A stretch of 64,000 bases of DNA, from assembly GCA_001972305.1 (NCBI GenBank), contig BDDD01001821.1, positions 132,715-196,714 of the forward strand. The letters are read 5' to 3'. Below, one piece after another: positions 1,141 through 62,842 of the stretch (within the stretch, counting starts at the first letter, position 1; the number at the start of each line of letters is the position of its first letter). The position numbers and the translations under genes are program-made. The notes under the pieces are model-generated. The model made no database searches, was not told the origin of the DNA, and worked only from the letters and a program-made list of their open reading frames with translations. The DNA comes from Cephalotus follicularis. Taxonomy: Eukaryota; Streptophyta; Magnoliopsida; Oxalidales; Cephalotaceae.

Positions 1141-1388
1141 GTCAACATACACCATATAGGCGTTAATGTTCAACCCAATCACTTAAGCGTCGCCGCTTAA
1201 CTCTTAGTGTCAACGCGTTCAACCATAAACTTTACGCGTCAACATCTCATCCCTTTGGCGTCGATGCTCTGAGGTAGGAACCTCAGGCGTCAACGGCACA
1301 CATGTCCATTCTCACATACAACAAATCATGACGTCGACGTTTTCCGTAAGCGTCGACATTTTTCGCGAATTCTTTCCTAAGCGTCGAT
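1141..1388 (-). promoter_or_regulatory. GTCGAC-type motif array (GCGTCGACGC dialect), ten sites
   Basis: Cores, exact or one to two bases off GTCGAC, start at 1141, 1162, 1189, 1209, 1238, 1260, 1289, 1333, 1352 and 1383. Spacings are 21, 27, 20, 29, 22, 29, 44, 19 and 31 bp. Exact cores are at 1333 and 1352; most others are GTCAAC or GTCGAT, as expected from CpG decay. The 44-bp gap follows a small palindrome, gaggtaggaacctc (1271-1284), which sits beside the same gap in the arrays near 18340 and 61560. Function is unknown; a protein-binding array is inferred. Confidence 0.75.
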
Positions 1389-2432
1389 GGTTAAGCGAAC
1401 CAAAACACGGTTCCTTCAACACGTCTCAAAACCAAAAGAGTTCAAAACACAGAACACGTCATTCAATTCGCAATCATCGCAAAACACAATATGCAGACAC
1501 GTTAACTATTTATAGCAACCCTAACACAGTCACACAATCCACATTCCGCAAACCATGCATTTCATCAATGGCATTACAATATTATTAAACTCAAACTTGC
1601 ATGTATAGCTTCCCTTACCTGTTACAGCAACACAGTCGAGCCGCAGGTTCAATTGCCGAACCTTTTCGATAATCGTTGAACCGAAGCCGGTTCTCGCCAA
1701 TTGATCAATTCCTCGATGCCAAATCCAATTGCCGCTTACACACTGCACATACAACACATTTCCGTTATGTTCGACACACAAAACATTTCCGTCGTCGAAA
1801 CGCCGGCCGGATTCCGACCGACACAACCAGGCGACAAAACACCCATCAACGGGTTCCACATTGAACGGTCTACTCAAAACTGGTCAAGACTCGCCGGGAA
1901 TCGGCGCCGAACGCCGTGCCACAGCCGACAGTGAGTTGCGACTCACTGAGTCAACTCGCCGGACCTCCACAAGTCCGATCACCACCCAAAAATGCCACAC
2001 ATTCACCAGTCCTACACGTCACTGCCCGTGACTCGCCAAGACTCGGCGCCAAACGCCGTGTCTCAGGCGGCCGTGAGTCGACTCGCTGAGTCGACTCAGC
2101 CTAGTGATTCTGGCCGATTCCGGCCGAATCACGTCTCAACGGTGGTCAAAATGGGTAGAGCTAGTCCTCTACACCAAAACCCACACCACCCGCGACGCTA
2201 ACGGCGCCGGGAAACGCCGGGAAAGAGGCGCGACAGTGGCAGCAAGGAGAAGAAAAAAGAAGAAAAAGAGAAGAAGGGGGAGGAGGTTACCGTCGGTTGG
2301 AGGCCCTGAGTTGACCGACGTGCTCTCCCGGTCCGGTAGCTGGCTCTGGCATCCTCTCTCTCCCTCTGCTCTGGTCTCTCTCCCAATCTCTCTCGCACTC
2401 TCTCCCAATCTCTCTCGTACTCTCTCCCAGAT

Positions 2433-2551
2433 GCAGGCGCTTTGTGCGCCTGCGTTCTATTCATGCACGGGCGCGTGATGCGCCCGTGTGTGTGTTTCTC
2501 CCCCCTTTATTCTTTGCTTCCTCCTTAGTATTTTCTGGTAAAATACTAAGG
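2433..2551 (-). promoter_or_regulatory. Three adjacent hairpins in LTR, near the CT-rich leader
   Basis: Three inverted repeats lie close together. 2433-2453 has an 8-bp GC-rich stem (GCAGGCGC). 2466-2488 has a perfect 9-bp stem (CACGGGCGC). 2523-2551 has a perfect 12-bp stem (CCTTAGTATTTT) around CTGGT. The third recurs about 263 bp from the LTR start in the copies at 12677-12706 and 50850-50876. Roles in RNA folding, packaging or termination are possible but unproven. Confidence 0.65.
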
Positions 2552-3160
2552 TACGGGTCCCGATTTTTTCGCAAATCGCGACATAAGTTATCCAAACAAC
2601 CACCAAAATAATCGCAATAATATTGCGAACATTTGGGCTTTATTGTCGCGCATTAAAAATAGGTTTTATTATCAGTCTTAGCTAACACGATTACGACTTA
2701 AATACGTAATGCCTTTTTATTTCTCCGGGCTCTATCGATTTTATCACAACTGTACACGCACCAATTTCATAATAAATATTTATAAAATTCGGGGCGTTAC
2801 AGACCTATTCTCTTTCTCTTTTTGTCTGACGTTCCTCTGACGTTTCCGTTCCTCGGACACTAATGCTCCTCTGATAGGCTCTAAATAATACTCAACTGCT
2901 GGTAGAGAACTTCTCGGCCATTCTTGCCAGGGATGCAAAGCTGAGGGTAGATATGGTAGTGTTGGACAAAGTTGTAACGGCTTTCAAGTCCTTAGACGAG
3001 TTCCAAATGTAATAACTGTAATTTTGATTAATGTATATTGTAACCTTTGATGAATAAAATATGCATTTTCTTGAGTTATGTGTTGAGTCTGCTTGAGTAG
3101 AATGAAATTTGGAATAAATTCTTAGATGCAAATTAAAGAAGTAAATTCTGGTGCTAAACC

Positions 3161-3275
3161 GCCGACGCCTAACGCCGTACCGTCGACGCTTTGAGCCCAG
3201 ACACGTGTACAAACGCGCAGTTGAAGGCTAAGTTATGACGCACAAACCGTCGACGCCAGAGAGAAAACCGTCGAC
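3161..3275 (+). promoter_or_regulatory. GTCGAC array upstream of the LTR TATA box
   Basis: Exact cores start at 3182, 3249 and 3270, with relatives at 3161 (GCCGAC) and 3220 (GTTGAA) and a CACGTG palindrome at 3202. The flanks are GC-type (CCGTCGACGC). The array ends about 280 bp before the TATA-like sequence at 3556. The equivalent position in the homologous LTR (22212-22306) carries CA/TG-type sites. Confidence 0.7.
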
Positions 3276-3555
3276 TCTTTGCGCAGTGTCAGGATTATGA
3301 TACACGCCTGTTAGAACAGAGCAGTGGTGCCCAATGGTTTCCATGCGAGCTAAGTGTCTAGAGACGTGGCAGACATGCAAGGAAAGCCAGACTAAGTGCC
3401 TTGCATGTGCTCTCCATCCCTGCAAGTCTGCATACCTGCAATCACAGCAGAAACCATAAAGAAAGAAACAAGAGAAAAGAATGCATGCATGAAGGAGAGA
3501 GAAAGGTACAATGAAAGTTAATCTAGCTGAGGAAATTAAAGGCACGAAATTGAGC

Positions 3556-3706
3556 CTTTATATCCGCTGATCCATGAGCTGATTGAGTGTTAGAAAACAC
3601 TGAGAAATAGAGAGACAATTTGGACAATTGCTGGGGGATTGCTAGAGGTTGAAGGAGCCTAAAGTTCAAGAGGGGAAACTTGGAGCATCACCTGGAATTG
3701 GTAAGT
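3556..3706 (+). promoter_or_regulatory. TATA-like box and LTR-borne 5' splice site
   Basis: CTTTATATCCGCTG at 3557 has counterparts at 22573 (CTCTATATCAGCTG) and 26775 (TTTTATAGCCGCTG), so TATA followed by GCTG is conserved. About 145 bp downstream, GGTAAGTAATCCG at 3700 is a near-perfect plant 5' splice site, matched at 22704-22710 in the homologous LTR. Transcription from this TATA would put the donor in the leader RNA. Confidence 0.55.
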
Positions 3707-4197
3707 AATCCGAAATTTTTTGATGTTGTTAAAGTCGTTAGTAATGTGACACCCTGATGTTAGCACCACACATCCACTGTTAACATGATTATGAAAGATA
3801 AAGCATGGAAGTGGAGATTGAATGTTGTATTAGTTAGAAATTAGAAAGTTGAACTTAGAAGTTAGTTACAAGCTTTTGATTCGATTCTTGATGTTATCAT
3901 GGTCAGATAATGAATAAACTTACTGGTATTAATGTATAAACCTGTAAACATGCAATTGTTAGGCTAATCTCTGCAAATTGGAAGATTAAGTTGGAGGTTG
4001 AAGAACTTGGACATAAAGAGAGAAATAAAGTCGATTTGATTTTGGGATTGCTTTTAAGGTAGGGGTTTTGACATGTTTTTGAACATATAACATGTATAAT
4101 GTGTAGTGATGGTTAAGATTTGATTGCATGTTGAATTGGACTGAGATTGAATTGATTTTGTGCATGCCCTGTTTTGTTATTGCTCCTGGAAATTGTT

Positions 4198-4355
4198 AAG
4201 AACGCTAGAAGCGCAGACGCTTAGGTTTAGACAGTCGACGCTTTGGTGCAAAAATGGCATGTTAAGGCTTAGAATGTCGACGCTTACTCTTTGATCGTGC
4301 ATCCAGTGTCAACGCTTAGTCCACAACCGTCGACGCTTAAATAGAAACTGTCGAC
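4198..4355 (+). promoter_or_regulatory. Second GTCGAC array of the LTR, downstream of TATA
   Basis: Exact cores start at 4234, 4276, 4329 and 4350, with decayed ones at 4198, 4213 (GCAGAC) and 4308 (GTCAAC). Spacings include 21 (4213 to 4234), 42 (4234 to 4276), 21 and 21 bp. All carry a GC right flank (GTCGACGCTT). The same place in the LTR at 22059-24777 holds CAGTCGACTG sites at 20-21 bp. Confidence 0.75.
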
Positions 4356-5948
4356 GCTTTAGGACAGTAAGTGTTGAAATGTTTAAATTGATTGATTGAA
4401 TTGATTGTGATTGTAAATATCCTTAAACTACTATATTGTAGCTGTCATTACTCTTTATTAATGAAATTACTACTGTTATGTACAAAAATCAAGGGTTTTA
4501 CCAACTTAATGCTTTGAGCATAAATAAATTTTAACAACGGATTTCATACAGAAATCTTATTGTATACAATTGCTATATTCCTCTACAAGAGGTACTGTAT
4601 CGTTTTGTTCTCCAAGAGAACCACTGACTGAATTGTTATGTTTTCTAAAAATCAAAACTACCGTTATATTGCATGTTATAGATATGTGTAATATTGTCAC
4701 TGAATTGATTGTCTACGTATTGCCGTTAGTCGAGTGATAGGAGACATCACTTGCTACGGAGGTGGTCCTATGTGCCAGGAGTTGGCTAGAGTCTCCACCC
4801 AAACTGTCTGCAATGCAGATCTTGATTGTTAAACTGCCCGCTAATGCCGGTAGTAACTGACCTGATCTATCATCTTCGGAGTGAAGGGTGATAGATAGGT
4901 GGTGCACAGTTGGTGCTAGGAGTTAGCGACATGTGACACCCAAACCACTGTATTGATTGATTGTACCCTTGTGTGGTATTCTTGCATTGTATTGTCTATG
5001 GCCACTTGGCATGATTTCTTATATATTGAAATACTTATATATATGTTATTTCAAATAAACTATCATGCATGTTTACAAGTATATATTCAATTATCATGCA
5101 TTATTTCCTACTTAGCCAAGTGAGGACAACGACTAACCCCCTACAATTTCAGATTAAGTGAAGGCGTTCGGGCAAGAGCTGCTGAAGCTTATTGGAGAGC
5201 TTTTATCTGCTTAAGGTTGTTATTTTATGTTGTATTGTATTTGAAATGAACGTTCACACTCCGTAGTTTTACTTTCCAGTATGTAAAAGGATAATTGTGG
5301 GTAGTGTATAAGCACGTAGTATGGGCTGCGTGCGGATGACTTTTATTTTATAATCCGGCAAATGGAATGCTTTCGCTATGGTTTTATGAATGTTGAATGT
5401 TAATTATAAATGCTAGATTATTATTTTATATCTGATATCACTTTATATGATTGTCTCTAATGGAATTGAAAGACGGGGTGTGACACCAAATGCTGATGAA
5501 ATCCTCCGTGGAGGAGTTCAAGGCTTCAGCTGAATTTGAGGAGGCAGTGTTTGAGGAAGCCGCCGAGTACTTTCGTCGCGTCTTCTACTCTTGCAGGAAC
5601 TGGGTTTCCTCTATTCACCCTGAGGTTCCTCTGGAAGGGGTGGTGTATGGTCTGGCTACCGAAGCCTTTGACTTCCATCCTGAAGGGGTCGATGAGGAGG
5701 AGGAGAAGTTTAGGCTTGCTCAGGAGAAGGGAGCTTCTTCTTCTCAGGAGGACGAGGAAACGAGAGCCGTGACACCATACTTGGTAATCTTACCCTCGGA
5801 CCCTGCCTTGGACTCCTCTTCGGGGCTCGTGGTTCCTCGGCCTCCAACCACTGATCCTTTCAACGCTTGCCTGCCTGTGGATGATCCGAGCTCCTCCTCA
5901 ACCACCTTGCCCGAGGATGATCAAGAAGCTCCTCCCCAAAGGGCTTAG

Positions 5949-8347: not shown

Positions 8348-8371
8348 TGCTTGATGCTCGGAATGCTCTGG

Positions 8372-9068: not shown

Positions 9069-9071
9069 GCT

Positions 9072-9902: not shown

Positions 9903-9929
9903 GGGTTTGGCAGGAATTCTCCTTTGTTT

Positions 9930-10094
9930 GTCGACCCCTCTGTCGATCAACACGTCGACGCATTGGCTCATAGCGTTGACGCCTATAAGTGAAGAGTTGA
10001 CGCGATGACCATTCTTTCACGTTTCTGTGCATTAACCAGTGTTACATGTTGACGCCTACAGTGATGACGTCGACGCCTAGAGGATAGTGTTGAA
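9930..10094 (+). promoter_or_regulatory. GTCGAC array inside the internal region of a gypsy
   Basis: Exact cores start at 9930, 9954 and 10069. Relatives are at 9942 (GTCGAT), 9975, 9996 and 10048 (GTTGAC) and 10089 (GTTGAA). Spacings from 9954 are 21, 21, 52, 21 and 20 bp. Flanks are GC-type (GTTGACGCCT, GTCGACGCCT). Unlike the other arrays it lies between pol fragments, not in a recognisable LTR, so an LTR scrap may have landed here. Confidence 0.7.
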
Positions 10095-13844: not shown

Positions 13845-14051
13845 GTCGACGCTTTATGCTTTCAAAACAAAACCCGTTGACACTTTCATATCTTAAACTG
13901 TGTAGTCGATGTTTTATATTTATGCTTTCTAAAACTGTCGACGCTTTTATGAGTTAAACCAAACAGTCGACGCCTTATGCTTTAAAACAAACCGCTGACG
14001 CTTTATACTTGTGCTTTTTAAAACTGTTGACGCCCGGGGCTAAGCATCGAT
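13845..14051 (+). promoter_or_regulatory. GTCGAC array with about 30-bp spacing
   Basis: Cores start at 13845, 13937 and 13966 (exact), and at 13876 (GTTGAC), 13905 (GTCGAT), 13994 (GCTGAC), 14026 (GTTGAC) and 14046 (ATCGAT). Spacings are 31, 29, 32, 29, 28, 32 and 20 bp, about three helical turns rather than the two seen elsewhere. Flanks are GC-type (CCGTCGACGCTT). Confidence 0.78.
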
Positions 14052-16031: not shown

Positions 16032-16798
16032 GGTAGGTTCTAGATATATGATATGAATCTATGCATATTGATTGAATGGTTTGTTTATATGGTTATAGAT
16101 GGATGGATATAGGAAATATGGATGAGTTAGGATGATTCCTGTGATTGATTTTGTCTGAAAACGGGAATCATAGAGAGATAGAGAGTTTTAGGTTTATAAG
16201 CCTAATCCCTTCTCTCTTTAGATTCAGGGGTTAAGGGTACGAATCTGAAGGTTTGAAGTTGTTTTCAACGTATTATCAACCACTGGAACTTACAGCTTCC
16301 TCTGGATAAGATTTTAAATTGATTTCAATGGTTTTGAATTAAACTGCAACTTGTTAGCAAAAGTTTTCGATCTTATGCAAAGGCCGCAAACCGTCAACGC
16401 CTCTGATAAGAGCGTTGGCGCTTTGCTCTTGAGATAACAGTTGACGCCTAGAGCTCAGAAGCCAAGGCAGAGCTCGAACAATTGAAGGAAGAGCTCAGAA
16501 GGCAAAGCAGAGCTCAGACCTTAGAAGTAGAGGTCAGAGCTTAAAGCTCGAAGTCAGACCTCGGTGCTTGAAGGCAGACCTTAGAGGCAGAGGTTAGAGC
16601 TCAAAGCTCGAAGTCAGACCTCGGTGCTTGAAGGCAGACCTCGGATGCAAAGGTCAGAGGTAGAGGTCAGAGCTCAAAGCTCGAAGTCAGACCTCGGCGC
16701 TTGAAGGTAGACCTCATAGGTAAAGGTCAGACCTTGGAGCAAAGAAGCTAAGGAAGAGCTCGGGAAGCTAAGGTAGACCTCAGAGGTAGAGTTTAGAC
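16032..16798 (+). mobile_element. Second gypsy, 5' LTR, left piece
   Basis: The LTR of the second plus-strand gypsy begins here in mid-sequence, homologous to 13541 onward of the first gypsy's LTR (ggtaggtt). It holds three decayed array sites (16393, 16414, 16440) and then a purine-rich tandem array. At 16799 it is interrupted by a solo LTR and resumes at 19514. Its true start is missing. Confidence 0.7.
16440..16795 (+). repeat. Purine-rich tandem array
   Basis: Phrases such as aggtcagagctcaaagctcg and aagtcagacctcggtgcttg alternate in units of roughly 60 bp, with several near-identical copies between 16510 and 16740. In one frame the start (near 16450) reads AKAELEQLKEELRRQ, coiled-coil-like, which might betray a coding origin, but the rest has stops. 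The same phrases continue at 19514-19570 beyond the inserted solo LTR. Confidence 0.75.
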
Positions 16799-18117
16799 TG
16801 TCACACCCCATTTCCATACATATCAACCTGAAGGTTGTGGCAATCAACATATATTCAGCTTATATCAAAATACGGAAAATTTAAAACTTTCAAAACGTGT
16901 ATAAACATTGCGGAAGCATATAAATCATAAGCTGAAATTAAAACATGTAACATGCATCCCATACTACTTGCTACAATAATATAACATCATCATTGTTAAC
17001 CGCCCTGAAACGGAGCATGAACTAATTCAGTCAAATACATTAATCCATTCTTAACAATTCCAACAATACATAATCTGTTACACAATATCCAAATTAACAT
17101 CTCCTTAAAGAAATACAACTCAAACTCTTCACTTTGTTTCCCCATGCTCACAGATATCGATCCACTGCATCATTCTGAAATTGATAGGGTTAGCCAAATT
17201 CACTGGTTAAGTAGAGAAAATATATATACATTTCGGCGTCAACGATAATGAATGTCATGTAATTAATGCATTCATGATGCAATACATGATATATATATAT
17301 ATATATCCACCAGCAAGTATCACCCGAGGGTCACAATAGCACAAATACGAGACTATCCCCAAAGGGGCCAGATACAACGATCAGGTCACTAAGGACCCAT
17401 ATACACTTTGGGGTCAACGATAATGAATGTCATGAAATGAATGCATTCATGATGCAATACATAATATATATATACCAATAGGTAAGCAACCACATAATCC
17501 ATCAATCACGTCCAAAGGACCAACCCCTACAAAGCGACTCTAACCGTCCCGGGTGAGGAAGGCTCGCAGTCTATCCGACACACGGGCAGGGAAAGCTTGC
17601 CCCATGTCGATGCTAACTGTCCAAGGCTAGGAAAGCTCATAGGCTAATCGGCACGTAGGCTGAGAAAGCTCGACCATCAATCAATCATGTTCCAAGTAGT
17701 CTATATATTTATAAACGCTTGAATTCATGCATACATTAGGATATATATAAAATAAATCCTTTCCAAATGAGTCAATTATGTTTCAAGTAGTCTATATATT
17801 TATAAACGCTTGAAATCATACGTATACATGTACATGTATACAAAATAAATCCTTTCCAAAATCACCATCAAGCAATTTATGCGCAATAAAATACTTGTCA
17901 AAACATGTTTATTGAAAATATGTAACCATATTTTGAATCCTCGTTTCAATATTTGAAAGATAATATTTCATTCAAAGTATTGGTTGTAACAACCATAAAT
18001 ATAGTTATCTAAAATGTTAAAACACTTTAGAAATCATATACATTTCAATCCATAATCCAGTCTATAGCAATATGCAATGCAAACATACGCTCAAAATGTG
18101 AAACAGACTCTATTAGC

Positions 18118-18427
18118 GTCGACGCATACCATCTAAGTGTGAACGTCCAAAACAGTCTCTTAAGCGTCAAAGTTTACCCTTAGCGTCGATGCTTATGTCC
18201 TCTAAGCGTCGGTGCTTAACTCTTAGCGTCAGAGTTTAGTTTAGAAGCTCTACGCGTCAATATCCAACCTCTTTGGCGTCGACGCTCAAGGCATGGACCC
18301 TTATGCGTCGGCGCTTCAATCCTTGGCATCCACCCTTTGAGGTAGGAACCTCATTTGTCAATGCTCTAGTCGTTCATTTCCTCATCCAACAATTCAAGGC
18401 GTTGACCCTTTTACCTTAAGCATCGAT
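18118..18427 (-). promoter_or_regulatory. GTCGAC array, thirteen sites (GCGTCGACGC dialect)
   Basis: Cores start at 18118, 18139, 18166, 18185, 18208, 18228, 18256, 18278, 18307, 18328, 18357, 18401 and 18422. Spacings are 21, 27, 19, 23, 20, 28, 22, 29, 21, 29, 44 and 21. 18118 and 18278 are exact; the others are mostly GTCGAT, GTCGGT or GTCAA. The 29-44-21 end matches 29-44-19 in the arrays at 1141-1388 and 61479-61646, including the palindrome gaggtaggaacctc. Confidence 0.8.
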
Positions 18428-19190
18428 GGTTAAAGAAGACCATATCGTCTTCTTCCCCAACACATAATAAAACCAGTAGAAATCCAAGCATAGTAATACA
18501 TGCATCTCAATCCATCATCAATCCAAACAACATGCATGGCAGGTTAACTAATCATAGCAACCATATCATCAATTAAACAATCCATAAACCACAATGGTCA
18601 TGCAAATCATCAATGATCATCCACCATTTTAAACTCAAAATTGCATGTATATAATCCCTACCTTAGATTCCAAGTTAGGAATCGAAGTTCACCTCTTTAA
18701 GTCCCTGACTAGTGTCGTCTTGAGCTCCCAGTAGCTCCTAGACTAGTTTCAACCTCCAAAACTCAAGCTTTCAAGCTCCTCACTGGTTCAACAATGGAGG
18801 ATATGATTTCCTCTCTTCCTCTCCTATTTTTTTCCGATTTTCCACTGTTGTTTCTCTCTATTTCTTCCTTTTTTTCTTTTCTTCTTAGTCCTGGTCAAAG
18901 AGATTGAGGGTGTTACATTTTAATGGCATTTCCTCCCTCTCTTTCTCTCACTCGCACATGCATGGTGCCAGGCATGCGCCATGCCTTTCTCTCTCTCATT
19001 CACCTACCGCATGCAACCCATGTGCCACACACTCTCTCTCTTCAATTCAGTCACTGGCTGGTCTAGGAATCATGGCTGCATGTCTAACACGCCGTCTCTG
19101 ACTTGATAAGGTGCCGAACAGTGGTCAATACCTACTCCCATAATGTTTTCCTGACAGTGTTTTAAACATGTCTCCTGTTTGTTGTTAAGC

Positions 19191-19336
19191 GGCGACGATT
19201 TCCTCTTAGCGTTGATGCTAAACTCAGTTCATTCAATGGTGTCGACGCTATCACTTGGCGTCGACGCTTTGTGGGCATGCATCTTACGCACGCACTTTGC
19301 TTTCTTACCGTCGATGCTTTACTCTTGGGCGTCTAT
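19191..19336 (-). promoter_or_regulatory. GTCGAC array with conserved spacing
   Basis: Read on minus, cores lie at 19331, 19310, 19260, 19241, 19211 and 19191, giving spacings 21, 50, 19, 30 and 20. 19241 and 19260 are exact. The LTR at 26120-27527 has 21, 48, 19, 30, 20, and the LTR at 56605-63050 has 20, 49, 18, 31, 19. The gap of about 49 bp holds an RY-like ATGCATGC stretch in all three. Confidence 0.8.
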
Positions 19337-19513
19337 GCTTTGTGCAGTTTTCAGTATTCTCAACCAATCTCAACCAATGCAACACTCTTAACAATCTTTT
19401 CTCAAAAATTAACATCATAAGTTGGGAATTCTGTCATTCTCATTGATTCATGATAAAATTACATTCAGAATTTCAACAATGCATTAAATATAATTTTCGG
19501 TCATTACATAGAC

Positions 19514-22211: not shown

Positions 22212-22306
22212 CTCGATTGTCACAGGGAAACATCGACTGCCTAGGTTATGGAGGAACAGCCGACTGTCACAGGGGAACATTCGGCTGCCAAGTGAATACA
22301 GTCGAC
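22212..22306 (+). promoter_or_regulatory. Upstream array, CAGTCGACTG dialect
   Basis: Cores start at 22212 (CTCGAT), 22232 (ATCGAC), 22259 (GCCGAC), 22280 (TTCGGC) and 22301 (GTCGAC, exact). Spacings are 20, 27, 21 and 21 bp. Most keep the CA left and TG right flanks (ACAGCCGACTG, ACAGTCGACTGG). It lies about 270 bp upstream of the TATA-like box at 22573. Confidence 0.72.
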
Positions 22307-23372: not shown

Positions 23373-23480
23373 GTCGACTATTAATCCCAACGGTCGACTA
23401 CTCAATGTAACCAGTCGACTGTTAAGGAAAACAGTCGACTACCTAATTGAAACAACCGGCTATTCTTATGAACAGGCGAC
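23373..23480 (+). promoter_or_regulatory. Regular array, six sites at 20-21 bp, CAGTCGACTG dialect
   Basis: Cores start at 23373, 23393, 23414 and 23434 (all exact GTCGAC), 23455 (ACCGGC) and 23475 (GGCGAC). Spacings are 20, 21, 20, 21 and 20 bp, a mean of 20.4, close to two DNA turns. Sequence between sites is unrelated AT-rich filler, so this is a spaced set of sites rather than a simple tandem duplication. Confidence 0.88.
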
Positions 23481-45179: not shown

Positions 45180-45184
45180 ACATA

Positions 45185-46757
45185 TAGCCGGGTAGGTATA
45201 CTATGTGCTATGCGTACAATAGTATAACAGTGTATGTGTGCAACAGTATAATAGAATGCCATGTAATGCAACAGTATAACCATATATATATGCGTGAATG
45301 CCAAGTGTGGACAGATCCAGTACACCAACTGTCCCTAAGAAGTGGTGTACTTCACTAGTCCTAGTATCACATCAAAGGCCATAGGCCTATAGACACTCCA
45401 TAAAAACCATCCATAACCATTCCAGGGGAACAATCAATCCATAGGTTCAAGTACTTCTCTGCCTCTCTGGCCCGAGATAGTACCTCTACCGTTCATACAC
45501 TCTATGTGCCATATCCAGTGGAGCATAGGATAAAACCGGCCACATATCCATAATTCTACTCCCAAAGTCAATAGCCCCTGAGGGGACCTCTGGGACTCTA
45601 TGCCGAAGGAGCTCAGGACGATCTACCCGATATCCATAATGCTAGTCCTGAAGGTACTAGCCCCTGAGGGGACCTGTTCGACTCTTTGCCTAAGGAGCTC
45701 AGCACGATCTACCCTAAATTCCTAATACTAGCCTTGAAGGTACTAGCCCCTGAGGGGACCTGTGCGACTCTATTATGAAGGAGCTCAGCACGATCTACCC
45801 TAAATCCCTAAAATGTGGCCAACATCCATAATTCTTCATGACGAAAATAAAGATTATGACTGGGTTATCCCGTAAGGTCTCAACCATTATAATCAATAGC
45901 CATAGCCGTACCATACCCATAATCCATAACCATATTCCATTCAAAAGATAGGGACCTACCATAAAGGATCTCATAGGATCCACATCCCTCAAAATCATTT
46001 AAAAACCATTTCCATAGCCATAACCCTTTCCATAACCATAAACCATTTCGTTTTTGTTGGTCCTTATCGGAGTTATAAAACAATGGAGATGAAGTCTAAT
46101 TAGGATATCCGCGTCCATATGTCCTAACTGAGTTATCCTAACCATTTACTAAAAACATTTCAAAATCCATAAAACGATGGAGAGGAAGTCTAATTAGGAT
46201 ATCCGCGTCCAGATGTCCCAATTGAGCTATGTTAACCATTGTGAAAAACCATTTGTATAAAACCCAAGATGAACAATAAAATGCTTTAAAAGAAAGGATG
46301 TCCCACTCATAGCTCTTACTACATCATTGGACGTTAACGTCCCTTCTTCTCTGATACTCTCTCCCTTTGGCTTGTCTGCTTCTTCCACTGCTGCGCTCGA
46401 AAAGCTTCACTGCTACTGGTCCAGGCGCAAGAATGAAGAAGAAGAAGAACAAAAGAAAACTAGACTCTCTCTCTCTAAAACTCTCTAATCTACAAAAGGT
46501 AGAAGAAAGGAAAGGCCACATCTCAAGATATATCTCCACACTAATCCCAGCATAAGCTGTCAAACGTCTTGGAAGTTGGAATCTTCCTCAAGAAGCTTTG
46601 TATAATAGTCCTTCAACTTCCCCAAATCCTACTTAAACCTTGGCTTAACATATCCTTCTTTTATCCATTATTACATATAAGCCCAAAACTCAAAAGAAAG
46701 CATATTTATCAACTTAAAAAGAAATCTTTAAGCTCCAAAACAGTATGGGGCATTACA
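45185..46757 (-). mobile_element. Gypsy LTR, minus strand, start piece
   Basis: Continues 37605-38267 beyond the copia. On minus the LTR starts TGTAATGCCCCATACTG at 46757; total length is about 2236 bp. It contains a CT-rich leader (46340-46470), two copies of a block (atggaga, then tctaattaggatatccgcg) near 46083 and 46177, and an 86-bp tandem repeat. No matching target duplication is seen (ccatt against atttt) and no polypurine tract precedes 46757, so it may be a recombinant end. Confidence 0.75.
45570..45815. repeat. Tandem repeat, 86-bp unit, about three copies
   Basis: The phrase agcccctgaggggacct recurs at 45573, 45659 and 45745, giving an exact 86-bp period. Each unit also contains aaggagctcag and cgatctaccc. 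The unit carries a small palindrome (cccctgagggg). Confidence 0.85.
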
Positions 46758-53430: not shown

Positions 53431-53711
53431 AAACTAAAACTAGGTCAGAGAACCTAAGAATTTATCTAAGGTTAGAAAATTGTTAAAGATTATGCAATGA
53501 TGAAGTTAAATGTTTGTTAAAAGTTATGTTGAACCTAATTATCTACGTTAAAATTTGTTAAAGATTATGCAAATGAGATTAGGGTTTGTTAAAGGTTATG
53601 ATGATTCCTAATTAAACTAAATTAGAATTGTTAGAAAAAACACAAAAACAGAAAATTAAAAATAAAAATACTATGAATCAGTCGAATAAATTTAAGCTAA
53701 TTTAAACCGTT

Positions 53712-53729: not shown

Positions 53730-53742
53730 AAAACTCGTTCAC

Positions 53743-55002
53743 TGTTAAAAAGAATGGTTTCAAATTTATAGCCGCAAGTGCACGGATCATGCAGTAACGG
53801 GTTGAACACAGGGAAACGTAAAGTAGTTGTAATTTATCCAACCTAGGTGAAGTATACCAATTTTTGAGATAAACTAACAAACTAATGAAGAAAAGATAAC
53901 AAAATATAATTAAAAAGCGGTTTAGGGTATAGAAACTCACCGTGGATTGTATTGAACAATTCCATGAAGTTGAACGATCATACCTTGATAAACAACGACA
54001 GCTAGGTCGATACGGAGTGCGGCGGTGATGACAAGACGTGTGAGTAGTCATGCTAGGTTTATACGAAGTGTGGATTTTAATCAGACAAGACGTATGAGTA
54101 GTCATGCTAGGTCTATACGAAGTGTGTTCGTTGCGACAAATCGTATGAGTAGACTCCGTTGAATTAAGCTCCATTTATTCACCAACTTTCAGCTTCACCG
54201 ACAAGATGAGTGTGGATTTTAATCAGACAAACAAAGTGTGTGCGAAGGCAGAAATATTGAAGAACAAATCAAATATTCAAGGATTTTTATTGATGGAATT
54301 GAAACAATAACAATCTAGGCTTTGTTCTAACCCAAAACCTTGAAAAACTAGCTACTAAACATTGTGAAACTAAAACTAATGAGGGAGGTGGCTATGTCCA
54401 CACACTCTCTCTAATCTACCCTACTTACCTACTTACTTCCTTGATTTGGCCGAAATAACATTGTTTATATACTACACAATTGATTAAAAATGGAATAAAA
54501 GCAATCCTAGTTACAAAATCTGGCAAAAATCTAATCTTTCTATTTCTGCTGCAAAGGAAGACGTCGACTTCTTTTGAAAGGCGTCGATGTCTTCTTGTAA
54601 AAGTCGCGATTTTCTAAGATGCGAGTGAAAGGCGTCGACTTATATGGCTAAAGACATCGACTTCATTTGCTCCAAAAGTTAGGGGTCAATTTTGCACAAA
54701 GACGTCGATGTGTAGGTTGAATGACGTCGATCCCTCCTTCATAGCTCTTTGTATTGCCCAGAAAAGACATCGATGCATATGAAAGGCGTCGACGCTTTTG
54801 CCTTGTTTTCTGCCGAATTTGACAATTCTTCAATCTCTACACTTTTAAGCTCCTTTTTGCACACTTTTGGGTAGTATTCTCGCACTTTGGTCATTTTGCA
54901 CTTGTACCTGAAAATCAATATAACACAACCAAAGTAGTCTATTCCAAGGCATAAAAATATCACAAATAACGCATTAAAAACAACACATTTTTATGTTAAA
55001 CA
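53743..55002 (-). mobile_element. 5' LTR of the Athila-type element, 1.26 kb
   Basis: On minus it starts TGTTTAACAT at 55002 and ends CTTTTTAACA at 53743, 13 bp before the PBS. It is unrelated in sequence to the TGTAAC-type LTRs. It contains a GTCGAC array (54563-54793) and a TATA box (54463-54474, TAGTATATAAAC on minus). Near 53990-54140 phrases such as atacgaagtgtg and cgtatgagtagtcatgc repeat irregularly. It sits in the integrase of another gypsy. Confidence 0.85.
54563..54793 (-). promoter_or_regulatory. GTCGAC array upstream of the TATA box in the Athila-type LTR
   Basis: Cores start at 54563, 54583, 54603, 54634, 54656, 54704, 54726, 54769 and 54788, with spacings 20, 20, 31, 22, 48, 22, 43 and 19. 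Exact at 54563, 54634 and 54788; others are GTCGAT, ATCGAC and ATCGAT. Flanks are mostly GAC- or GGC-type (AAGACGTCGACTTC). Read on minus, the array ends about 90 bp before the TATA box. Confidence 0.85.
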
Positions 55003-56604: not shown

Positions 56605-57339
56605 TGTCACACCCCGTTTTCCAAACGACATATAAGTGGTAGCAATTAACATAAATAATCCGGCTTATCAAATTTGACGATAAATTTAAACCTTTTAAAA
56701 CGGATATATCAGTTGCGGAAGCCTTTAATATAAGCCGAACTAACAACGTAACACGCATCCCATACTACGCGTTGCAACAAAACAACTTCATTGTTAATTG
56801 CTCACAAGCGGAGCGTGAATTAACCTTCATTTTAATCATAAATATCTCCCATAGAGAAGTTCACATATATAAATTAAAACCCAAAACATTGTTCTAAAAC
56901 CCAAATACAGAATTATCCAAATTGAACAAGTACAAGTTAGCATCCTCTCCGACATGAGTAGGATTATCATAATACAAATTAGCTTAAACAACCTTCAAAT
57001 GACAGCTCCCAAAAAATATCCTTCACCGCACTTGTCTGATTGCCTCCGTCAATCTAAAATAGTAGGGGGTTAGTCTTTGTCCTCACTCGGCTAAATATAA
57101 ATACATTTTGGGGTCAAATAATGAATGACATGAAATGAATGCATTCATGATGTAGTACATAAATAACACAATATATACATGAACATATATATATATCCAC
57201 AAGCAGGTATCACCCGAGGGTCACAATAACACAAGCACGAGACTATCCCCAAATGGGCCAAATGAAACGATCAGGTCACTAAGGACCCATCAAGCCAGAT
57301 CAAAGTTGCTGACACCCAGGCTCAACAACCAGTTACTTA

Positions 57340-57655
57340 CACAACAGTGCTTAGTAACCAAAAGGGAGTCCCTAGCTACTTGCCCAACAGAGGTCAGGAA
57401 CCATTGCGTGGAAAACCCCTAGCTACTTACTCAAGAGAGTTTAGTGGCTACCGTATATGGAACTTCCAACTACTTTCCCAACAGAGCTTAGTAGTGGAAT
57501 TCCTGGCTACTTACCCAACAGAGTTTAGTAACCCAAACAAGCCATCACAAGTAATTAACAAATAAAATACTTGGAACCAAAACATCCCAAATGGGCATCA
57601 GTTCTTTTAACACAATTTACCGTTTCAGCTACTCACCCAACAGAGTTTAGCAGTT
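57340..57655. repeat. Irregular tandem repeat in LTR
   Basis: The phrase ctacttacccaacagagtttagtag recurs with variations about six times, at intervals of roughly 45-110 bp. It occupies the same LTR position as the unrelated 75-bp repeat at 190-605. Confidence 0.65.
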
Positions 57656-59369
57656 ATCAAAATTTTACAGTCCTTTTCAAGTAATTTATAAGTATAAAAT
57701 ATTGAACATATATTTATATTTTGCTCAAATATACAAGAGCCCTTTTCAATCCTTTTCAAGTAGTTTTAGTGTATCATAAAATACTTGAAATCAATACATT
57801 AAAAAAAAATGTACTCCGATCCTTCGAAAATACTCATGCCCGAATAACATAATTTATGTGAAACCGTTTCACAATCCTTTTCTTTCTTTTTGGAAAATAT
57901 ACATTTCCGTCACAATCCAATTCCAAGTAAATTATTATGTATAAGTAATTGACAACATTTCATTTATTCAAAATGTATAACTAGTCCTTCTGTACAGTAT
58001 TTAATTCTTTGAGAATACTTACTTTCGTATACATAATTTTAATCATTGAAATCATTTTCACAATCCTTTTTGGAAAAGATGTTTTTCCACACAACATCAT
58101 ATACACATTTCTCAAATCAAATATTATTTAAGAAATCATGCGGTATCACAACAATGCAAAACACAGTAGTATGAAATGCAAACATATGGTCAAACATGCC
58201 TAGAGTCGCTTCTAGAATCGTTACGGAACCAACGGGTCCAAAATGAGCCAAACCATTGAAACCAGGAGGAAAGGCGTCGACGCCTTTCCTCAACGCGTCG
58301 ATGCTTATTGTCCAAAAGCGACGACGTTCATTTCCAGTGTCAGTGTAACACCCCCGATCTGTGGGAGTCGCCACAGTCCATAATACCAAAACTAAACAGA
58401 TCACATCATGTTAAAAAGGTTCATCTTTATTAAAAACGTGATGGTTTAAAGCACATCCATAACATACAAAAACTGATCATAACTGAAATTTATGCAAAAT
58501 CCAAAAGTCATAAACTGAAATAACACATTATTTAATTATCGGGTTCCACTATGACCACATAACATAAAGGATCAGCTACTAGACAATCCTCAGATAAGAT
58601 GGGTGTCACTCTCATCACACATTGCCCCTTTGCTCCCGATAACCTGCCGCATGGAAACAAAAATGCGGCTGAGCAAACCTCAGTACGGATATAGAATATA
58701 AAGCAGTAAATAATATTTTAAAGCAGGAAGATTTCCAAAAAGAGCATTTAAAACTGAAATCTTTAGCAATAAATAATTTAAACCTGTTTTATAAATGCCC
58801 ACGACAAAACGGATAAACAAAGTTCATAGCTTTGAAAACCATAAAGTGTACCTTTTTCCAAAACATAGGATCAATAAACTTTCAAAACGTAAAGCATGTC
58901 TTTTCCAAAACATAGGTTCCATAAACTGAGCACCAAATCAGAAACATATAATAGCAAGGGGTTCGCGACACCCACGTTGCCAAATAGAATTGCTGTGTAC
59001 GGCACAACACATACAATTCCCATATCATAACATATCACAAAACATATAACTAGGATCGATCCATACGCCTCTATCACAAATCTAATCTACGGATATCACA
59101 GAGAGACGCCGTAAACAAATCACACCGTTACGGAAAGTGTCATGCCCCCGTGCCAGGCTCACAGCATGCCTATGGTACCCCCATAGGTGGATATAAAAGC
59201 TCAGTATTTCACCATTTAAAAAACTTAGTATTTCAAAAATAATGATTTATCAAAATCATTTCATATATTGGTTCACCCCAAAACCAATTCAAAACATATA
59301 AATATCATTTCATAAAATCAGCATACTTTCGATAGGGAAAGTCATGCCCATTTAACATACTCTCGATAG

Positions 59370-59887
59370 NNNNNNNNNNNNNNNNNNNNNNNNNNNNNNN
59401 NNNNNNNNNNNNNNNNNNNNNNNNNNNNNNNNNNNNNNNNNNNNNNNNNNNNNNNNNNNNNNNNNNNNNNNNNNNNNNNNNNNNNNNNNNNNNNNNNNNN
59501 NNNNNNNNNNNNNNNNNNNNNNNNNNNNNNNNNNNNNNNNNNNNNNNNNNNNNNNNNNNNNNNNNNNNNNNNNNNNNNNNNNNNNNNNNNNNNNNNNNNN
59601 NNNNNNNNNNNNNNNNNNNNNNNNNNNNNNNNNNNNNNNNNNNNNNNNNNNNNNNNNNNNNNNNNNNNNNNNNNNNNNNNNNNNNNNNNNNNNNNNNNNN
59701 NNNNNNNNNNNNNNNNNNNNNNNNNNNNNNNNNNNNNNNNNNNNNNNNNNNNNNNNNNNNNNNNNNNNNNNNNNNNNNNNNNNNNNNNNNNNNNNNNNNN
59801 NNNNNNNNNNNNNNNNNNNNNNNNNNNNNNNNNNNNNNNNNNNNNNNNNNNNNNNNNNNNNNNNNNNNNNNNNNNNNNNNNNNNNNN
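59370..59887. other. Assembly gap, 518 N
   Basis: Unbroken run of N. Just before it the phrase agcatactttcgatagggaaagtcatgccc is partly repeated (acatactctcgatag), suggesting an unresolved tandem repeat. ORFs called across it are meaningless. Confidence 0.99.
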
Positions 59888-60101
59888 CCTAAAGCAAATT
59901 TTAACAGATAAGCATTCATGAAACGTTCGCGTATACTTGAAATTCAACAATCTATAAACACATTAAAAATCATGTGTATAAGAGTTTAAAACACATTAGA
60001 AGCATTAAACAGACTCACAAAAAAGTTTGGAAAAGATTCGGATCGATTTGGGGGTCAAACGAATCAAAACGGGTGAAAACAGCACATTCCAGGGCATACC
60101 A

Positions 60102-60261
60102 GTCGCCTGGAATAGTGATCCAGTCGACTGGAGGGTCTGGGCAGCCGACTGGATCAGGTGACAGTCGACTACGCAACCTAAAAATGCAGGTAGTCGACTG
60201 TGTTCTTCAGTACAGTCGACTGGCCACCCATTCCAGTCGGCTGTCCACTCAGACAGTCGGC
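60102..60261 (-). promoter_or_regulatory. Regular array, eight sites, CAGTCGACTG dialect
   Basis: Cores start at 60102 (GTCGCC), 60123, 60144 (GCCGAC), 60164, 60193, 60215, 60236 (GTCGGC) and 60256 (GTCGGC); unlabelled ones are exact GTCGAC. Spacings are 21, 21, 20, 29, 22, 21 and 20. Seven of the eight keep a CA or equivalent left flank and most a TG right flank (CCAGTCGACTGG). Filler between sites is not repeated. Confidence 0.9.
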
Positions 60262-61478
60262 TGTTCTGGGCAGCAGAACATTCTGAAATTCGACGATTTG
60301 CTACTGAAAATGATTTAAATGATTTCTACATTAAACCAAAGACATATGGACATAAACATATGATTATATATGACTTGTAGGTGATTTACAAACATCAATT
60401 TGACAAAGAAACGACTTTTCCATGATTTAATTTGAAAAAGGGAGTAAGAAGACATTGCATGAACATGTCTAGATTTTGTTTCTAATTGATAGCAGAAGTT
60501 ATGAACTTAGTTTGTGACAAATTTAGGTGCATAAAACGTGCAGATAACATCACTAATACATTGACAACATGTTTAGGCAAGAATCAAAGACTCAAGACTC
60601 CAAGAGCACAAAAACTCAAAGTAAGCCTTTGAAACAAAACCATAATTGAAGGGAATGAATTTACTGACCTTTAATGATGTTAGATAACCCAGAAATCAGT
60701 AGGGAGAACACAGTACAACACACAATTCAGCTGTGAACAGAAACAAAGAAGGAAGAATACAAAACCATGGTATTTTTAGACATACATAACAAAATAAGAG
60801 AATTCAATCCAAGGAAATAATTAAAGGATTGAGATTACCTCCTGGAATTGGATGAATGCTTCACACAGCAGATTTGTTCACACAAACAAAGCAATTTCGG
60901 ATTTGTTTGCAATAGGGATGGTGGCATCATATAAAAATGACAATGGCACTCAAATATGAAGAAATGGGGGACAAGATTTGACAAAGGGAAATGGAATGAG
61001 ACTTTTATGGATTATGAAATGAAAAAGAGAGATTCTAACATGACTTTTGCAGATGGTGGGAGGAGAAATATGCTGGAAAGAAGAATGGTGGTGGAAGGAA
61101 GTAGGTGAAAGTGGTAGAAAATGATAAAATACGAAAAAGAAAAGAAAAAGAAAAAATAACAAAATGAATTAATAATGAAAAGGAAAAATAAGGAATATTA
61201 AGATAAAAGAATAATAATTTGTTTTTAATAAAATAATTTTGGATTAAAATAAGAATTTATAAAACCCAACATAGCATAACATACCCAAATATCGGACCGG
61301 TATCATACCGCACAATTCACATAAACCCGAATCGTCGGGTAACCGGACTTTTTAAAATTAAACAAAATTAAAAGCCCGAAAACACAAATATAATATCCGT
61401 AAAATATTTACGATTCCGTAAAAATATATTTACGAACGAACCGGGTATTACAGTTAGAGCTTGTGACAGTACAAAAGC

Positions 61479-61930
61479 GTCGATGTTTTTCTATAGGCGT
61501 CGATGCTTATGAGCCAAAACCCTTAGGCGTCGATGTTCATCACAACCCATCGATGTTTAAGGTAGGTACCTTAACACGTCCTCGCGTTATGTGCAAGGCC
61601 TAATGCATAGCAACCAAAGACTTCGATGCCTTCCCTAGATGGCGATGTTTAAGTGGTACCAGGAGGTATCACCTCGACCAGACTCCATTTCAAAGAAGAA
61701 TCCATCCTCCGTCCACGCATGTACTTCCCAGATACACCATTTCTGGCATAACACGCACAACAGGTTATTCATATGTATAACCAAATCATCAACCCATCAA
61801 GAGTCCACAAGTCCAAAAGCAAACATTGCAGTTCTACAAATGTTTGAAATAGACATCGATGCTTAACTAAGACGTCGACGTCTATTGCCTCATCGCATAA
61901 AGACATCGATGCTTACCGCAAAAGCATCGA
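61479..61930 (-). promoter_or_regulatory. Downstream GTCGAC-type array of the third gypsy LTR
   Basis: Cores start at 61479, 61499, 61529, 61549, 61578, 61622, 61641, then 61855, 61874, 61905 and 61925. Spacings are 20, 30, 20, 29, 44, 19, then a gap, then 19, 31 and 20. Only 61874 is exact; most are GTCGAT or ATCGAT. Beyond the nested solo LTR the array continues at 58276 (exact), 58297 and about 58319. Confidence 0.75.
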
Positions 61931-62699
61931 CGTTTAAGAGTCCAGAACACTGTCTCTTCCATACAACACCCAAACGGGAACATAAAATCCAATTATACAT
62001 GCAGTCTAACATGGGATTCACACAGAATTCAACATGCATGCATAATCCACTCAACCAGGTGTTCATATCATCAAACAAACATCCAAATCAACTCCAAAGC
62101 AGGCATGCAATTCATGCATTTTACTCATGGAAAAACATTAGCTTGAACTCAAAAGTGCACATATACTTCCCCTACCTCTGGTTTCAAGTTAGAAACCTTG
62201 AAAGTCAACCTGTTTGTGATCCAAGAGTTGATCACAGCAGCCCCAGGTTCGTCCCTTGCTGCAAGCTATCAGCTCCAAGCTCCCAAGCTCCACTAGTTCA
62301 ACAATCGTGGAACTCCCTCTTCACACTCACTGTTTCTTTCTTTCCTCTCCTTAGGTGTTTTAAACGAGAGAGAGGGGTGGGGATGGGGTTGTTCTTATGC
62401 AGATGGCTCCCTCTCCCTCTTTCTCTCTGCACTAAAAGAACTCTCCTATGTTCTCTCCCTCTTCCCCATCCAAGTCCTGCATTCTAACTTTGTTTCCTTC
62501 TCTTCTTTTGCAGGTTGCATGCATGCTAACACTTGTTACATTCCCCATCCTTCTTCAGTCATACAGGTCAGGGGGGGCTATTATGCATGACTAACACGTC
62601 CCACTTAGTGTCCCAAGGCGCCTGCAACAAGTTCAGAATTGCCCTCCTTTGCACGTTATTCTGTCAGTTCATAACGTGACTGATATCCTTTTTAAAGAC

Positions 62700-62842
62700 G
62701 TCGATGTCTTCTTTAGACGTCGGTGTCTTTTCCTCTTTCGTACACGGGCATCGATGCCTTCATCTGCATCGACGTGCATGTGCATGCATTTACGTGCGCC
62801 CCTTGTTCTCATAGGCGTCGACGTTTTTACAAAGACATCGAT
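62700..62842 (-). promoter_or_regulatory. Upstream GTCGAC-type array with conserved spacing
   Basis: On minus, cores lie at 62837, 62817 (exact), 62768, 62750, 62719 and 62700, spaced 20, 49, 18, 31 and 19. The order equals that of 26297-26435. Flanks are GAC/GTC type (AAGACGTCGATGTC at 62697). The wide gap holds tgcatgtgcatgcatttacg, again RY-like. Confidence 0.82.

What the first reader, a model, noticed from the sequence alone, without database searches (positions are those of the whole stretch)
1141..62842. A family of spaced GTCGAC palindrome arrays in LTRs of unrelated retrotransposon lineages
I count roughly 45 exact GTCGAC in 64 kb; about 16 would be expected for random equal-base DNA, and fewer in CpG-poor plant DNA. 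Almost all fall in some fifteen arrays within LTRs: chromovirus-like gypsy (3 kb, 13.8 kb, 18-19 kb, 22-23 kb, 26 kb, 58-62 kb), an Athila-type LTR (54.6 kb) and a copia LTR (44 kb). These LTRs are otherwise unalignable between lineages. Arrays sit upstream of TATA boxes and often again downstream. Inference: they bind a dimeric factor that controls LTR transcription or silencing. Known parallel: VANC anti-silencing proteins of VANDAL transposons recognise short motifs clustered in their own non-coding regions.
Basis: partly seen in the sequence, partly recalled or inferred. Interest (0 to 1): 0.88.

Follow-up and report, generated by a model that had tools for sequence, protein, structure and literature searches.

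The report
Helix-phased palindrome arrays in retrotransposon LTRs
Several different families of jumping genes in this large, unnamed, plant-like genome carry clusters of the same short mirror-image DNA word near their start switches, spaced by whole turns of the DNA helix, which looks like a docking rail for an unidentified protein that controls them.

Summary
GTCGAC occurs 48 times (6.65 expected); 44 of 48 lie in LTR-assigned DNA. It is the core of a 16-bp palindrome, with a second form CAGTCGACTG.

New: neighbouring palindromes are spaced by whole helical turns (10.2-10.3 bp): in the window (0 of 5000 jittered controls), in 20 unselected 10-kb stretches of the same genome (0 of 3000), and in five hand-assigned element lineages (weakest 43 of 5000). 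Genome-wide, exact CGTCGACG pairs number 17,526 at 19-22 bp, 396 at 24-27, 3,445 at 29-32, 180 at 34-37 and 1,849 at 39-42.

Palindrome cores are better conserved than spacers in one family. First arrays sit about 120-420 bp into many LTRs, second arrays about 1.1-1.6 kb in.

Best reading: operator arrays for a dimeric protein binding side by side on one DNA face. The closest known thing is the 'RM boxes' of Sirevirus LTRs, described as Sirevirus-specific with a CGG-CCG core; here another core is shared by copia and Ty3/gypsy elements. Protein and effect are unknown.

The parts
3008..5485 (+). LTR-1, solo LTR of a Ty3/gypsy chromovirus-like element, TSD CCAAA
   Evidence: TG..CA ends and 5-bp TSD; lineage name by its termini is recalled
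3161..3275 (.). LTR-1 upstream array, 4 sites, type A (LTR positions 154-263)
4213..4355 (.). LTR-1 downstream array, 6 sites, type A (LTR positions 1206-1343)
22059..24777 (+). LTR-2, solo LTR inserted in a copia LTR, TSD GTTTT
22232..22306 (.). LTR-2 upstream array, type B (CAGTCGACTG), LTR positions 174-243
23373..23480 (.). LTR-2 downstream array, type B, gaps 20, 21, 20, 41
26120..27527 (+). LTR-3, solo LTR, TSD TGCAG
26297..26477 (.). LTR-3 array, LTR positions 178-316 plus exact site 26472; no second array
16799..19508 (-). LTR-4, solo LTR, TSD GTCTA on the minus strand
19191..19336 (.). LTR-4 upstream array (LTR positions 173-313)
18118..18427 (.). LTR-4 downstream array (LTR positions 1082-1386)
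1..2801 (-). LTR-5 (start at 2801; other end not determined, may lie outside the window)
   Evidence: TGTAACGCCCCG start; no TSD found
1189..1388 (.). LTR-5 array (LTR positions 1414-1608)
13845..14051 (.). Array in LTR-6 (LTR start 12428, +; end not determined), LTR positions 1418-1619
16393..16445 (.). Short decayed array in the DNA, probably another LTR, that LTR-4 interrupts
53742..54986 (-). Athila-like LTR (ends approximate, by eye), next to gag ORF 52564-53433 (-)
54563..54793 (.). Array of 8 sites in pairs (gaps 20, 51, 22, 48, 22, 43, 19) upstream of the TATA box near 54471
42687..45200 (+). 3' LTR of a Ty1/copia element (RVT_2 at 41293-41871); right end not determined
43986..44485 (.). 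Copia LTR array; TATA box near 44364; two sites follow it
58344..61452 (-). LTR-8, nested inside LTR-9 (imperfect TSD CTAAC/CTGAC, by eye)
60123..60261 (.). LTR-8 array, type B, LTR positions 1192-1325; no first array
56605..63050 (-). LTR-9 (61453-63050 plus 56605-58343, split by LTR-8)
62700..62842 (.). LTR-9 upstream array (LTR positions 209-346)
61479..61931 (.). LTR-9 downstream array, first part (LTR positions 1120-1567)
58276..58325 (.). LTR-9 downstream array, part beyond the nested LTR-8
9954..10074 (.). Array in internal, coding-like DNA (exception to the LTR rule), gaps 21, 21, 52, 21; exact site 9930 beside it

Best explanation
The arrays are cis-regulatory operator arrays. Each 16-bp dyad is the target of a sequence-specific protein that binds as a symmetric dimer. 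Dimers sit a whole number of helical turns apart, mostly two, so neighbours face the same side of the DNA and can touch and bind cooperatively. The first array lies about 150-420 bp into the LTR, upstream of the presumed promoter, in Tekay-like and Athila-like LTRs (119-649 in a Sirevirus-like one); a second lies about 1.1-1.6 kb in, in several related Ty3 LTRs; in the Sirevirus-like copia one also lies before the env-like ORF. The factor most likely controls LTR transcription or chromatin state to the element's benefit, because elements keep the site cores while spacers drift. Shown: sites, symmetry, phasing, position, cross-lineage sharing, core conservation in one family. Inferred: the protein, dimerisation, cooperativity, direction of effect, and that one factor family serves all lineages.
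For: 48 against 6.65 expected; 105 matrix sites against 10.25. Symmetry: outward half-site preference G/T, C, T, T, T to five positions on each side of GTCGAC, with 20-30 of 48 sites complementary at each of those positions (about 12 expected). Phasing: window period 10.2 bp, 0 of 5000; 20 unselected stretches, 25 arrays, 174 sites, period 10.3 bp, 0 of 3000; per lineage Athila-like 0, Sirevirus-like 0, Tekay-like 0, second Ty3 family 0, other copia 43 of 5000 each; 192 of 224 neighbour gaps lie within a fifth of a turn of a whole multiple of 10.3 bp. Genome-wide CGTCGACG pairs by equal 4-bp spacing bins: 17526 / 396 / 3445 / 180 / 1849; CAGTCGACTG 38192 against 2736. Conservation in six LTRs of one family: core identity .88-.90, spacers .78-.82, rest .80-.83. 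CATCGA is 3.6-fold over-represented and TGTCGA 1.1-fold, which simple CpG deamination, hitting both strands alike, would not give.
Against: No binding, expression or methylation data, and no known factor matched. With exact GTCGAC sites alone the window phasing is weaker: 31 distances, 6 of 5000 at the best period and 120 of 5000 when any period may win. In one search site columns have as many or more gaps than spacers (core .05-.13, spacer .04-.06), and in the Tekay-like set DNA outside the arrays (.56-.77) overlaps the cores (.64-.74). Part of array growth is tandem duplication (same-length spacers within arrays .58 identical, between arrays .415; 15 of 66 against 67 of 1950 pairs at .8 or more), so not every phased pair is independent. 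Genome-wide counts are dominated by multi-copy families, and 2,736 type-B pairs stand at 24-27 bp, most listed ones at 27 bp. 7 of 25 random-stretch arrays are unassigned; a structural search found candidate LTRs with TSDs around only 5 of 25. One window array (9930-10074) is not in an LTR. TATA boxes are not convincing in LTR-3, -4 and -9.
Confidence: 0.72

Rival explanations
1. RNA-structure or siRNA reading: complementary palindromes form hairpins in LTR transcripts that feed small-RNA silencing, as proposed for maize Sireviruses.
For: Five of nine array segments folded with z of -2.1 or lower (two near -5), against -2.0, 0.0, -1.1 and 0.2 in four non-array LTR segments. Palindrome clusters are sRNA hotspots in maize Sireviruses (passages of PMC5311732; PMC10760457).
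Against: Two arrays of LTR-1 fold no better than shuffles (z -0.6 and +0.5). A hairpin needs no 10.3-bp spacing of dyad centres, and arrays upstream of the promoter are not expected in the main sense transcript from the 5' LTR. It may be a by-product.
Confidence: 0.12
2. [quoted passage not shown]
For: By eye, the predominant subtype agrees between the two separated arrays of one LTR in the six LTRs inspected (LTR-1, -4, -9 GTCGAC with C/G flanks or its CATCGATG-like variants; LTR-2, L024, L011 CAGTCGACTG), as expected if one evolving factor reads both. VANC6 also acts on the unrelated AT9TSD1 (passage of PMC5735166). CpG o/e is 1.30 in arrays against .72 in the window, as if arrays escape methylation decay.
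Against: No candidate protein was sought or found. The motif differs from YAGTATTAY and AGTTGT[CA]C. The six LTRs are related, so subtype agreement is not six independent events. High CpG may simply reflect motif content.
Confidence: 0.15
3. Neutral origin: tandem duplication of a short unit, or an LTR cassette copied between elements, with no function.
For: Some neighbouring spacers are near-identical (15 of 66 same-length within-array pairs at .8 or more) and Tandem Repeats Finder reports a few arrays.
Against: Duplication of a 21-bp unit alone cannot give the 29-32 bp peak (3445 genome-wide, with 396 and 180 in the sampled bins on either side), nor keep site cores more than spacers. No alignment links the copia, Athila-like and Tekay-like LTRs of the window.
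Confidence: 0.05
4. A known host stress factor of the CBF/DREB (AP2) type uses GTCGAC (RYCGAC) and GCCGAC sites to drive LTRs in the cold.
For: GTCGAC fits RYCGAC on both strands (recalled); type-B arrays hold CAGCCGACTG variants.
Against: Such factors are recalled as monomeric binders of a 6-bp site; that does not explain 16-bp symmetry or helical phasing, nor the CATCGATG variants. Not testable here.
Confidence: 0.06

Closest known systems
Sirevirus repeated-motif (RM) boxes (Bousios et al. 2010, PMC2829016; abstract, passages and section 9 read)
   Same: Many copies of one palindrome per LTR, upstream of the TATA box, CpG-rich, and also before the env-like gene. In this genome the Sirevirus-like element in L008 has that layout. 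The grape element's RM, CGGTCGACCG, contains GTCGAC; Tnd-1's, ACAATCGATTGT, has the TCGA centre.
   Different: Reported as Sirevirus-specific and absent from classic copia elements, with a CGG-CCG core in all but Tnd-1. Here the core is CGTCGACG, CATCGATG or CAGTCGACTG, it is shared with Ty3/gypsy lineages, a second array occurs further into several Ty3 LTRs, and spacing follows the helix. I saw no mention of helical spacing in the parts I read; I did not read the whole paper or its supplements.
Palindromic cis-regions of maize Sirevirus LTRs (Bousios et al. 2016, PMC4728375; not held, known only through passages of PMC5311732 and PMC10760457)
   Same: Clusters of complex palindromes in the LTR regulatory region.
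   Different: One copia group, motif CACCGGACNNNGTCCGGTG, interpreted through small RNAs.
VANDAL transposons and VANC anti-silencing proteins (PMC5735166, abstract and passages)
   Same: Short motifs accumulate in non-coding parts of a TE and change between related families.
   Different: DNA transposons (MULEs, recalled), different motifs, and a TE-encoded protein, none sought or shown here.

Membership tests
Sirevirus RM boxes | High-copy palindromic motif in the LTR (8 or more copies per element) | tested here: met
   At 8.5 bits: 10 sites in LTR-1, 13 in the L011 LTR, 14 in the L008 LTR, 9 in the Athila-like LTR; LTR-3 (7) and LTR-8 (5) do not reach 8
Sirevirus RM boxes | Cluster in the upper half of the LTR, upstream of a TATA box | tested here: inconclusive
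   Fits L008 (119-649, TATA 756) and the Athila-like LTR (194-419, TATA 516); in the copia LTR the cluster is just before the TATA (1300-1633, 1678). TATA not convincing in LTR-3, -4 and -9; LTR-5, -6, -8 and the second Ty3 family lack the first cluster
Sirevirus RM boxes | Extra copies 5' of the env-like gene | tested here: met
   L008 array 1671-1838 between RVT_2 and the ORF with PF20167; that this ORF is the env-like gene is my inference from its place. Seen in this element type only
Sirevirus RM boxes | CGG-CCG core signature | tested here: not met
   Cores are CGTCGACG, CATCGATG and CAGTCGACTG; Tnd-1 is a published exception
Sirevirus RM boxes | Confined to Sireviruses | tested here: not met
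   Arrays in Ty3/gypsy LTRs (RVP_2, RT_RNaseH and Integrase_H2C2 between the L010 LTRs) and an Athila-like LTR
Sirevirus RM boxes | Clusters form CpG islands | tested here: inconclusive
   CpG o/e 1.30 in 8260 bp of arrays against .72 (window) and .67 (random); no island-calling program was run
VANDAL/VANC system | Known VANC target motif (YAGTATTAY or AGTTGT[CA]C) | tested here: not met
   The motif found is a TCGA-centred palindrome
VANDAL/VANC system | TE encodes a VANC protein that demethylates targets | not tested
   No search for VANC proteins; no methylation data
Satellite / simple tandem repeat | One repeated unit with similar spacers | tested here: not met
   Same-length spacers within arrays .58 identical on average (.415 between arrays); gaps also near 30, 50 and 70 bp

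The most novel reading that the evidence does not exclude
One family of dimeric DNA-binding proteins assembles on helix-phased operator arrays that copia (Sirevirus-like and other) and Ty3/gypsy (Tekay-like, Athila-like and a second family) LTRs have each built up: a shared, genome-wide LTR control code, so pervasive that pieces of its motif are the five most over-represented hexamers in an unselected 200-kb sample of a 1.58-Gb genome, with subtypes tracking paralogous factors.
Probability: 0.45. Interest if true: 0.88.

Novelty: new variant of a known kind. Interest (0 to 1): 0.76.

Why it matters
LTR retrotransposons make up much of many plant genomes, yet the host proteins that switch most lineages on or off are unknown (general knowledge). 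A motif kept at similar positions and helical spacing in several unrelated lineages is a direct handle: the array DNA can be used as bait for the protein. It would also change how the RM boxes of Sireviruses are seen, from a quirk of one genus to one case of a broader, phased operator system, and would explain a striking compositional feature of a genome.

Tried and rejected
Single satellite or lone tandem unit: does not fit spacer diversity and the 30/50/70-bp gaps. Pure CpG decay of one ancestral word: rejected as the sole source of variants, since CATCGA is common and TGTCGA is not. RNA hairpins as the conserved feature: mixed folding results. The GAGTCGACTC sites at 2077 and 2090 were set apart: they match a repeated GAGTCAACTC-like stretch in LTR-5, -6 and -7 at LTR positions about 665-817; they remain in the 48 and in the phasing test. 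Naming the binding factor from memory (CBF/DREB, RWP-RK, VOZ) led nowhere; a paper search on RWP-RK motifs listed one paper, not relevant. No relatives were found in viral contigs with the copia reverse transcriptase, nor with an LTR pattern in viral or prokaryote contigs; no other plant genome could be searched, so nothing is known here about other species. Literature: the listings (15 of 280 shown; 8 of 10 shown) showed me no report of GTCGAC arrays shared across LTR lineages or of helical phasing in LTR palindromes; the library holds only open-licence papers, and of the listed ones I opened only PMC2829016, PMC5311732, PMC10760457 and PMC5735166.

Analysis choices to know: the matrix was trained on the 48 window sites, so window site counts favour it; the random stretches are independent of that training. 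Cluster limits, thresholds (8 to 10 bits), LTR intervals and lineage labels were set by hand; the names Tekay-like, Athila-like and Sirevirus-like rest partly on recalled termini, primer sites and polypurine tracts. The lineage test used 32 hand-picked regions (15 in the window, 17 in the random stretches, these holding 18 arrays), a fixed period of 10.3 bp taken, and re-used the arrays. Left out of it: window arrays 9954-10074, 16393-16445 and 58276-58325, and the 7 unassigned random-stretch arrays. In 'spacer' means everything between the first and last site, so for LTRs with two arrays it includes the DNA between them.

Full report
WHAT IS THERE. It holds 48 exact GTCGAC against 6.65 expected by dinucleotide shuffles, none of 100 reaching 48. 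The five hexamers with the highest observed/expected are all pieces of GCGTCGACGC. Base preferences continue symmetrically for about five positions on each side: outward from GTCGAC they read G or T, C, T, T, T/A. A symmetric 16-bp matrix, trained on those sites, finds 105 sites at 9 bits or more against 10.25 in simulated sequence, and 62 against 1.25 at 12 bits. Subtypes, named by me: A, AAAGCGTCGACGCTTT; B, CAGTCGACTG; C, AAGACATCGATGTCTT; D, AAGGAGTCGACTTCTT-like.

WHERE. Four solo LTRs with 5-bp target-site duplications were delimited: 3008-5485 (+), 22059-24777 (+), 26120-27527 (+) and 16799-19508 (-) (which also lists chance pairs). Further LTRs were read by eye: starts at 2801 (-) and 12428 (+); 58344-61452 (-), nested in 56605-63050 (-); an Athila-like LTR at about 53742-54986 (-) beside a gag ORF; and a copia LTR from 42687 (+) after an RVT_2 domain. 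Array positions counted from the LTR start are alike: first array 154-263, 174-243, 178-316, 173-313 and 209-346 in LTR-1, -2, -3, -4 and -9, and 194-419 in the Athila-like LTR; second array 1206-1343, 1315-1417, 1082-1386 and 1120-1567 in LTR-1, -2, -4 and -9. LTR-8 (1192-1325), LTR-5 and LTR-6 (1414-1619) have only the far array; LTR-3 only the near one; LTR-7 none in the part read. In the copia LTR the array (1300-1633) ends just before a TATA box (1678). One array, 9930-10074, lies in internal, coding-like DNA.

SPACING. Distances between neighbouring sites are quantised: 38 of 76 neighbour gaps are 18-23 bp (random placement 13.3 +/- 3.2, maximum 26 in 2000 trials), then peaks near 30, 42, 50 and 68. 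Over 154 pair distances of 16-110 bp the best period is 10.2 bp (mean cosine .494); 0 of 5000 jittered sets reach it. With exact GTCGAC only (31 distances) the period is also 10.2, with 6 of 5000, or 120 of 5000 if any period may win. This is close to the helical repeat of B-DNA.

OUT OF SAMPLE. I took 20 stretches of 10 kb chosen only by contig number (200 kb with 15,145 N). The top five hexamers there are again TCGACG, CGTCGA, CGACGC, GTCGAC (74 against 15.4) and GCGTCG. Arrays of three or more sites occur in 12 of 20 stretches at 10 bits and 13 of 20 at 9 bits. The 25 arrays (174 sites, 321 distances) give a period of 10.3 bp, 0 of 3000 controls reaching it even over all periods tried. Pooled over window and sample, 192 of 224 neighbour gaps fall within a fifth of a turn of a whole number of turns.

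GENOME-WIDE. Exact pairs of CGTCGACG by centre spacing (reversed-letter control in brackets): 19-22 bp 17,526 (31), 24-27 bp 396 (14), 29-32 bp 3,445 (11), 34-37 bp 180 (0), 39-42 bp 1,849 (4). CAGTCGACTG pairs: 19-22 bp 38,192 (136), 24-27 bp 2,736 (7), most of the listed ones at 27 bp with similar spacers. ACATCGATGT pairs at 19-22 bp: 1,105 (0) (no antiphase count made). The alternation between equal 4-bp bins is the internal control; the counts include multi-copy families.

LINEAGES. By homology and domains, 18 of the 25 arrays in the random stretches belong to retroelements (my assignment): six in a second Ty3/gypsy family with an LTR pair in L010 (RVP_2, RT_RNaseH, Integrase_H2C2, SH3_Tf2-1), three in Sirevirus-like copia (L008, L011), one in an Athila-like LTR (L011, 81-84% to the window copy), one beside DNA like the window's copia LTR (L017), and seven in or next to Tekay-like LTR DNA, among them a solo LTR at L011 7073-9600 with TSD ATAGC and arrays at LTR positions 167-242 and 1152-1362. 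Seven are unassigned. The structural search alone gave candidate LTRs with TSDs around 5 of 25 arrays, of which I trust the L011 one. Tested separately, phasing holds in Athila-like (0 of 5000), Sirevirus-like (0), Tekay-like (0), the second Ty3 family (0) and other copia (43 of 5000).

CONSTRAINT. In six LTRs of the second Ty3 family, with sites defined on one member and identity measured among the others, core positions are .88-.90 identical, spacers .78-.82 and the rest .80-.83; gaps are as frequent or more so in cores (.05-.13) as in spacers (.04-.06). In four Tekay-like LTRs cores are .64-.74 and spacers .48-.63, but DNA outside the arrays is .56-.77 and exceeds the cores with L011 as reference (.77 against .72). 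CpG deamination of CGTCGA should give CATCGA and TGTCGA alike; in the sample they stand at 3.62 and 1.13 times expectation. Arrays have CpG o/e 1.30 against .67-.72.

HOW IT LIKELY WORKS. Dyad symmetry points to a dimer; one-face spacing points to contacts between dimers; position points to control of the LTR promoter, with a second site set further in. Which protein, and whether it activates, insulates or removes silencing, is not shown. RNA folding is mixed: z -0.6, +0.5, -2.0, -2.1, -4.7, -2.3, -2.4, -5.0 and -1.8 in nine array segments against -2.0, 0.0, -1.1 and 0.2 in four others, so hairpins may be a side effect that feeds small RNAs. Some arrays have grown by tandem duplication.

WHAT IS KNOWN. 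The nearest precedent is the Sirevirus RM box (PMC2829016; abstract, passages and section 9 read): palindromic, high copy, upstream of the TATA box and of env, CpG-rich, described as Sirevirus-specific with a CGG-CCG core; the grape element's box is CGGTCGACCG. The Sirevirus-like element in L008 matches that layout. What appears new here is the sharing of one palindrome family by copia and Ty3/gypsy LTRs, the second array, and the helical phasing. The layout is the same kind; the membership test fails on core and on confinement to Sireviruses. VANC (PMC5735166, abstract and passages) is an analogy only.

LIMITS. One genome; no expression, methylation or binding data; lineage labels partly recalled; thresholds chosen by me; pair counts not corrected for family copy number.

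Noticed in passing
window 58344-61452 within 56605-63050: A solo LTR (LTR-8, type-B array) has landed inside the downstream palindrome array of another LTR (LTR-9), splitting it; the target duplication CTAAC/CTGAC has one mismatch.
   Followed up: partly
window 9930-10074: A phased array (gaps 21, 21, 52, 21) lies in DNA that reads like a decayed Ty3 gag-pol region rather than an LTR.
   Followed up: no
window, LTR regions after or within the first array (e.g. 3374-3490, 22381-22444, 26350-26366): RY-type words are also over-represented in the window (CATGCA 52 against 19.0, GCATGC 31 against 11.7); such words are recalled as targets of B3 seed-development factors.
   Followed up: no
window 3053-3058 and 22103-22108: An AATAAA word sits about 45 bp into LTR-1 and LTR-2, upstream of the presumed promoter.
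   Followed up: no
window 2077-2095, 13104-13249, 50316-50462: A repeated stretch of GAGTCAACTC/GAGTCGACTC-like words occurs in LTR-5, -6 and -7 at LTR positions about 665-817.
   Followed up: partly
window 16450-16781: A GAGCTC/AGACCTCGG tandem-repeat block lies beside a decayed array and next to the insertion site of LTR-4.
   Followed up: no
L008 2350-3042: An ORF with PF20167 (Transposase_32, putative plant transposon protein) lies after copia reverse transcriptase, in the env-like position, preceded by a palindrome array.
   Followed up: partly
window 59370-59887: 518 bases read N, an assembly gap or a withheld stretch.
   Followed up: no
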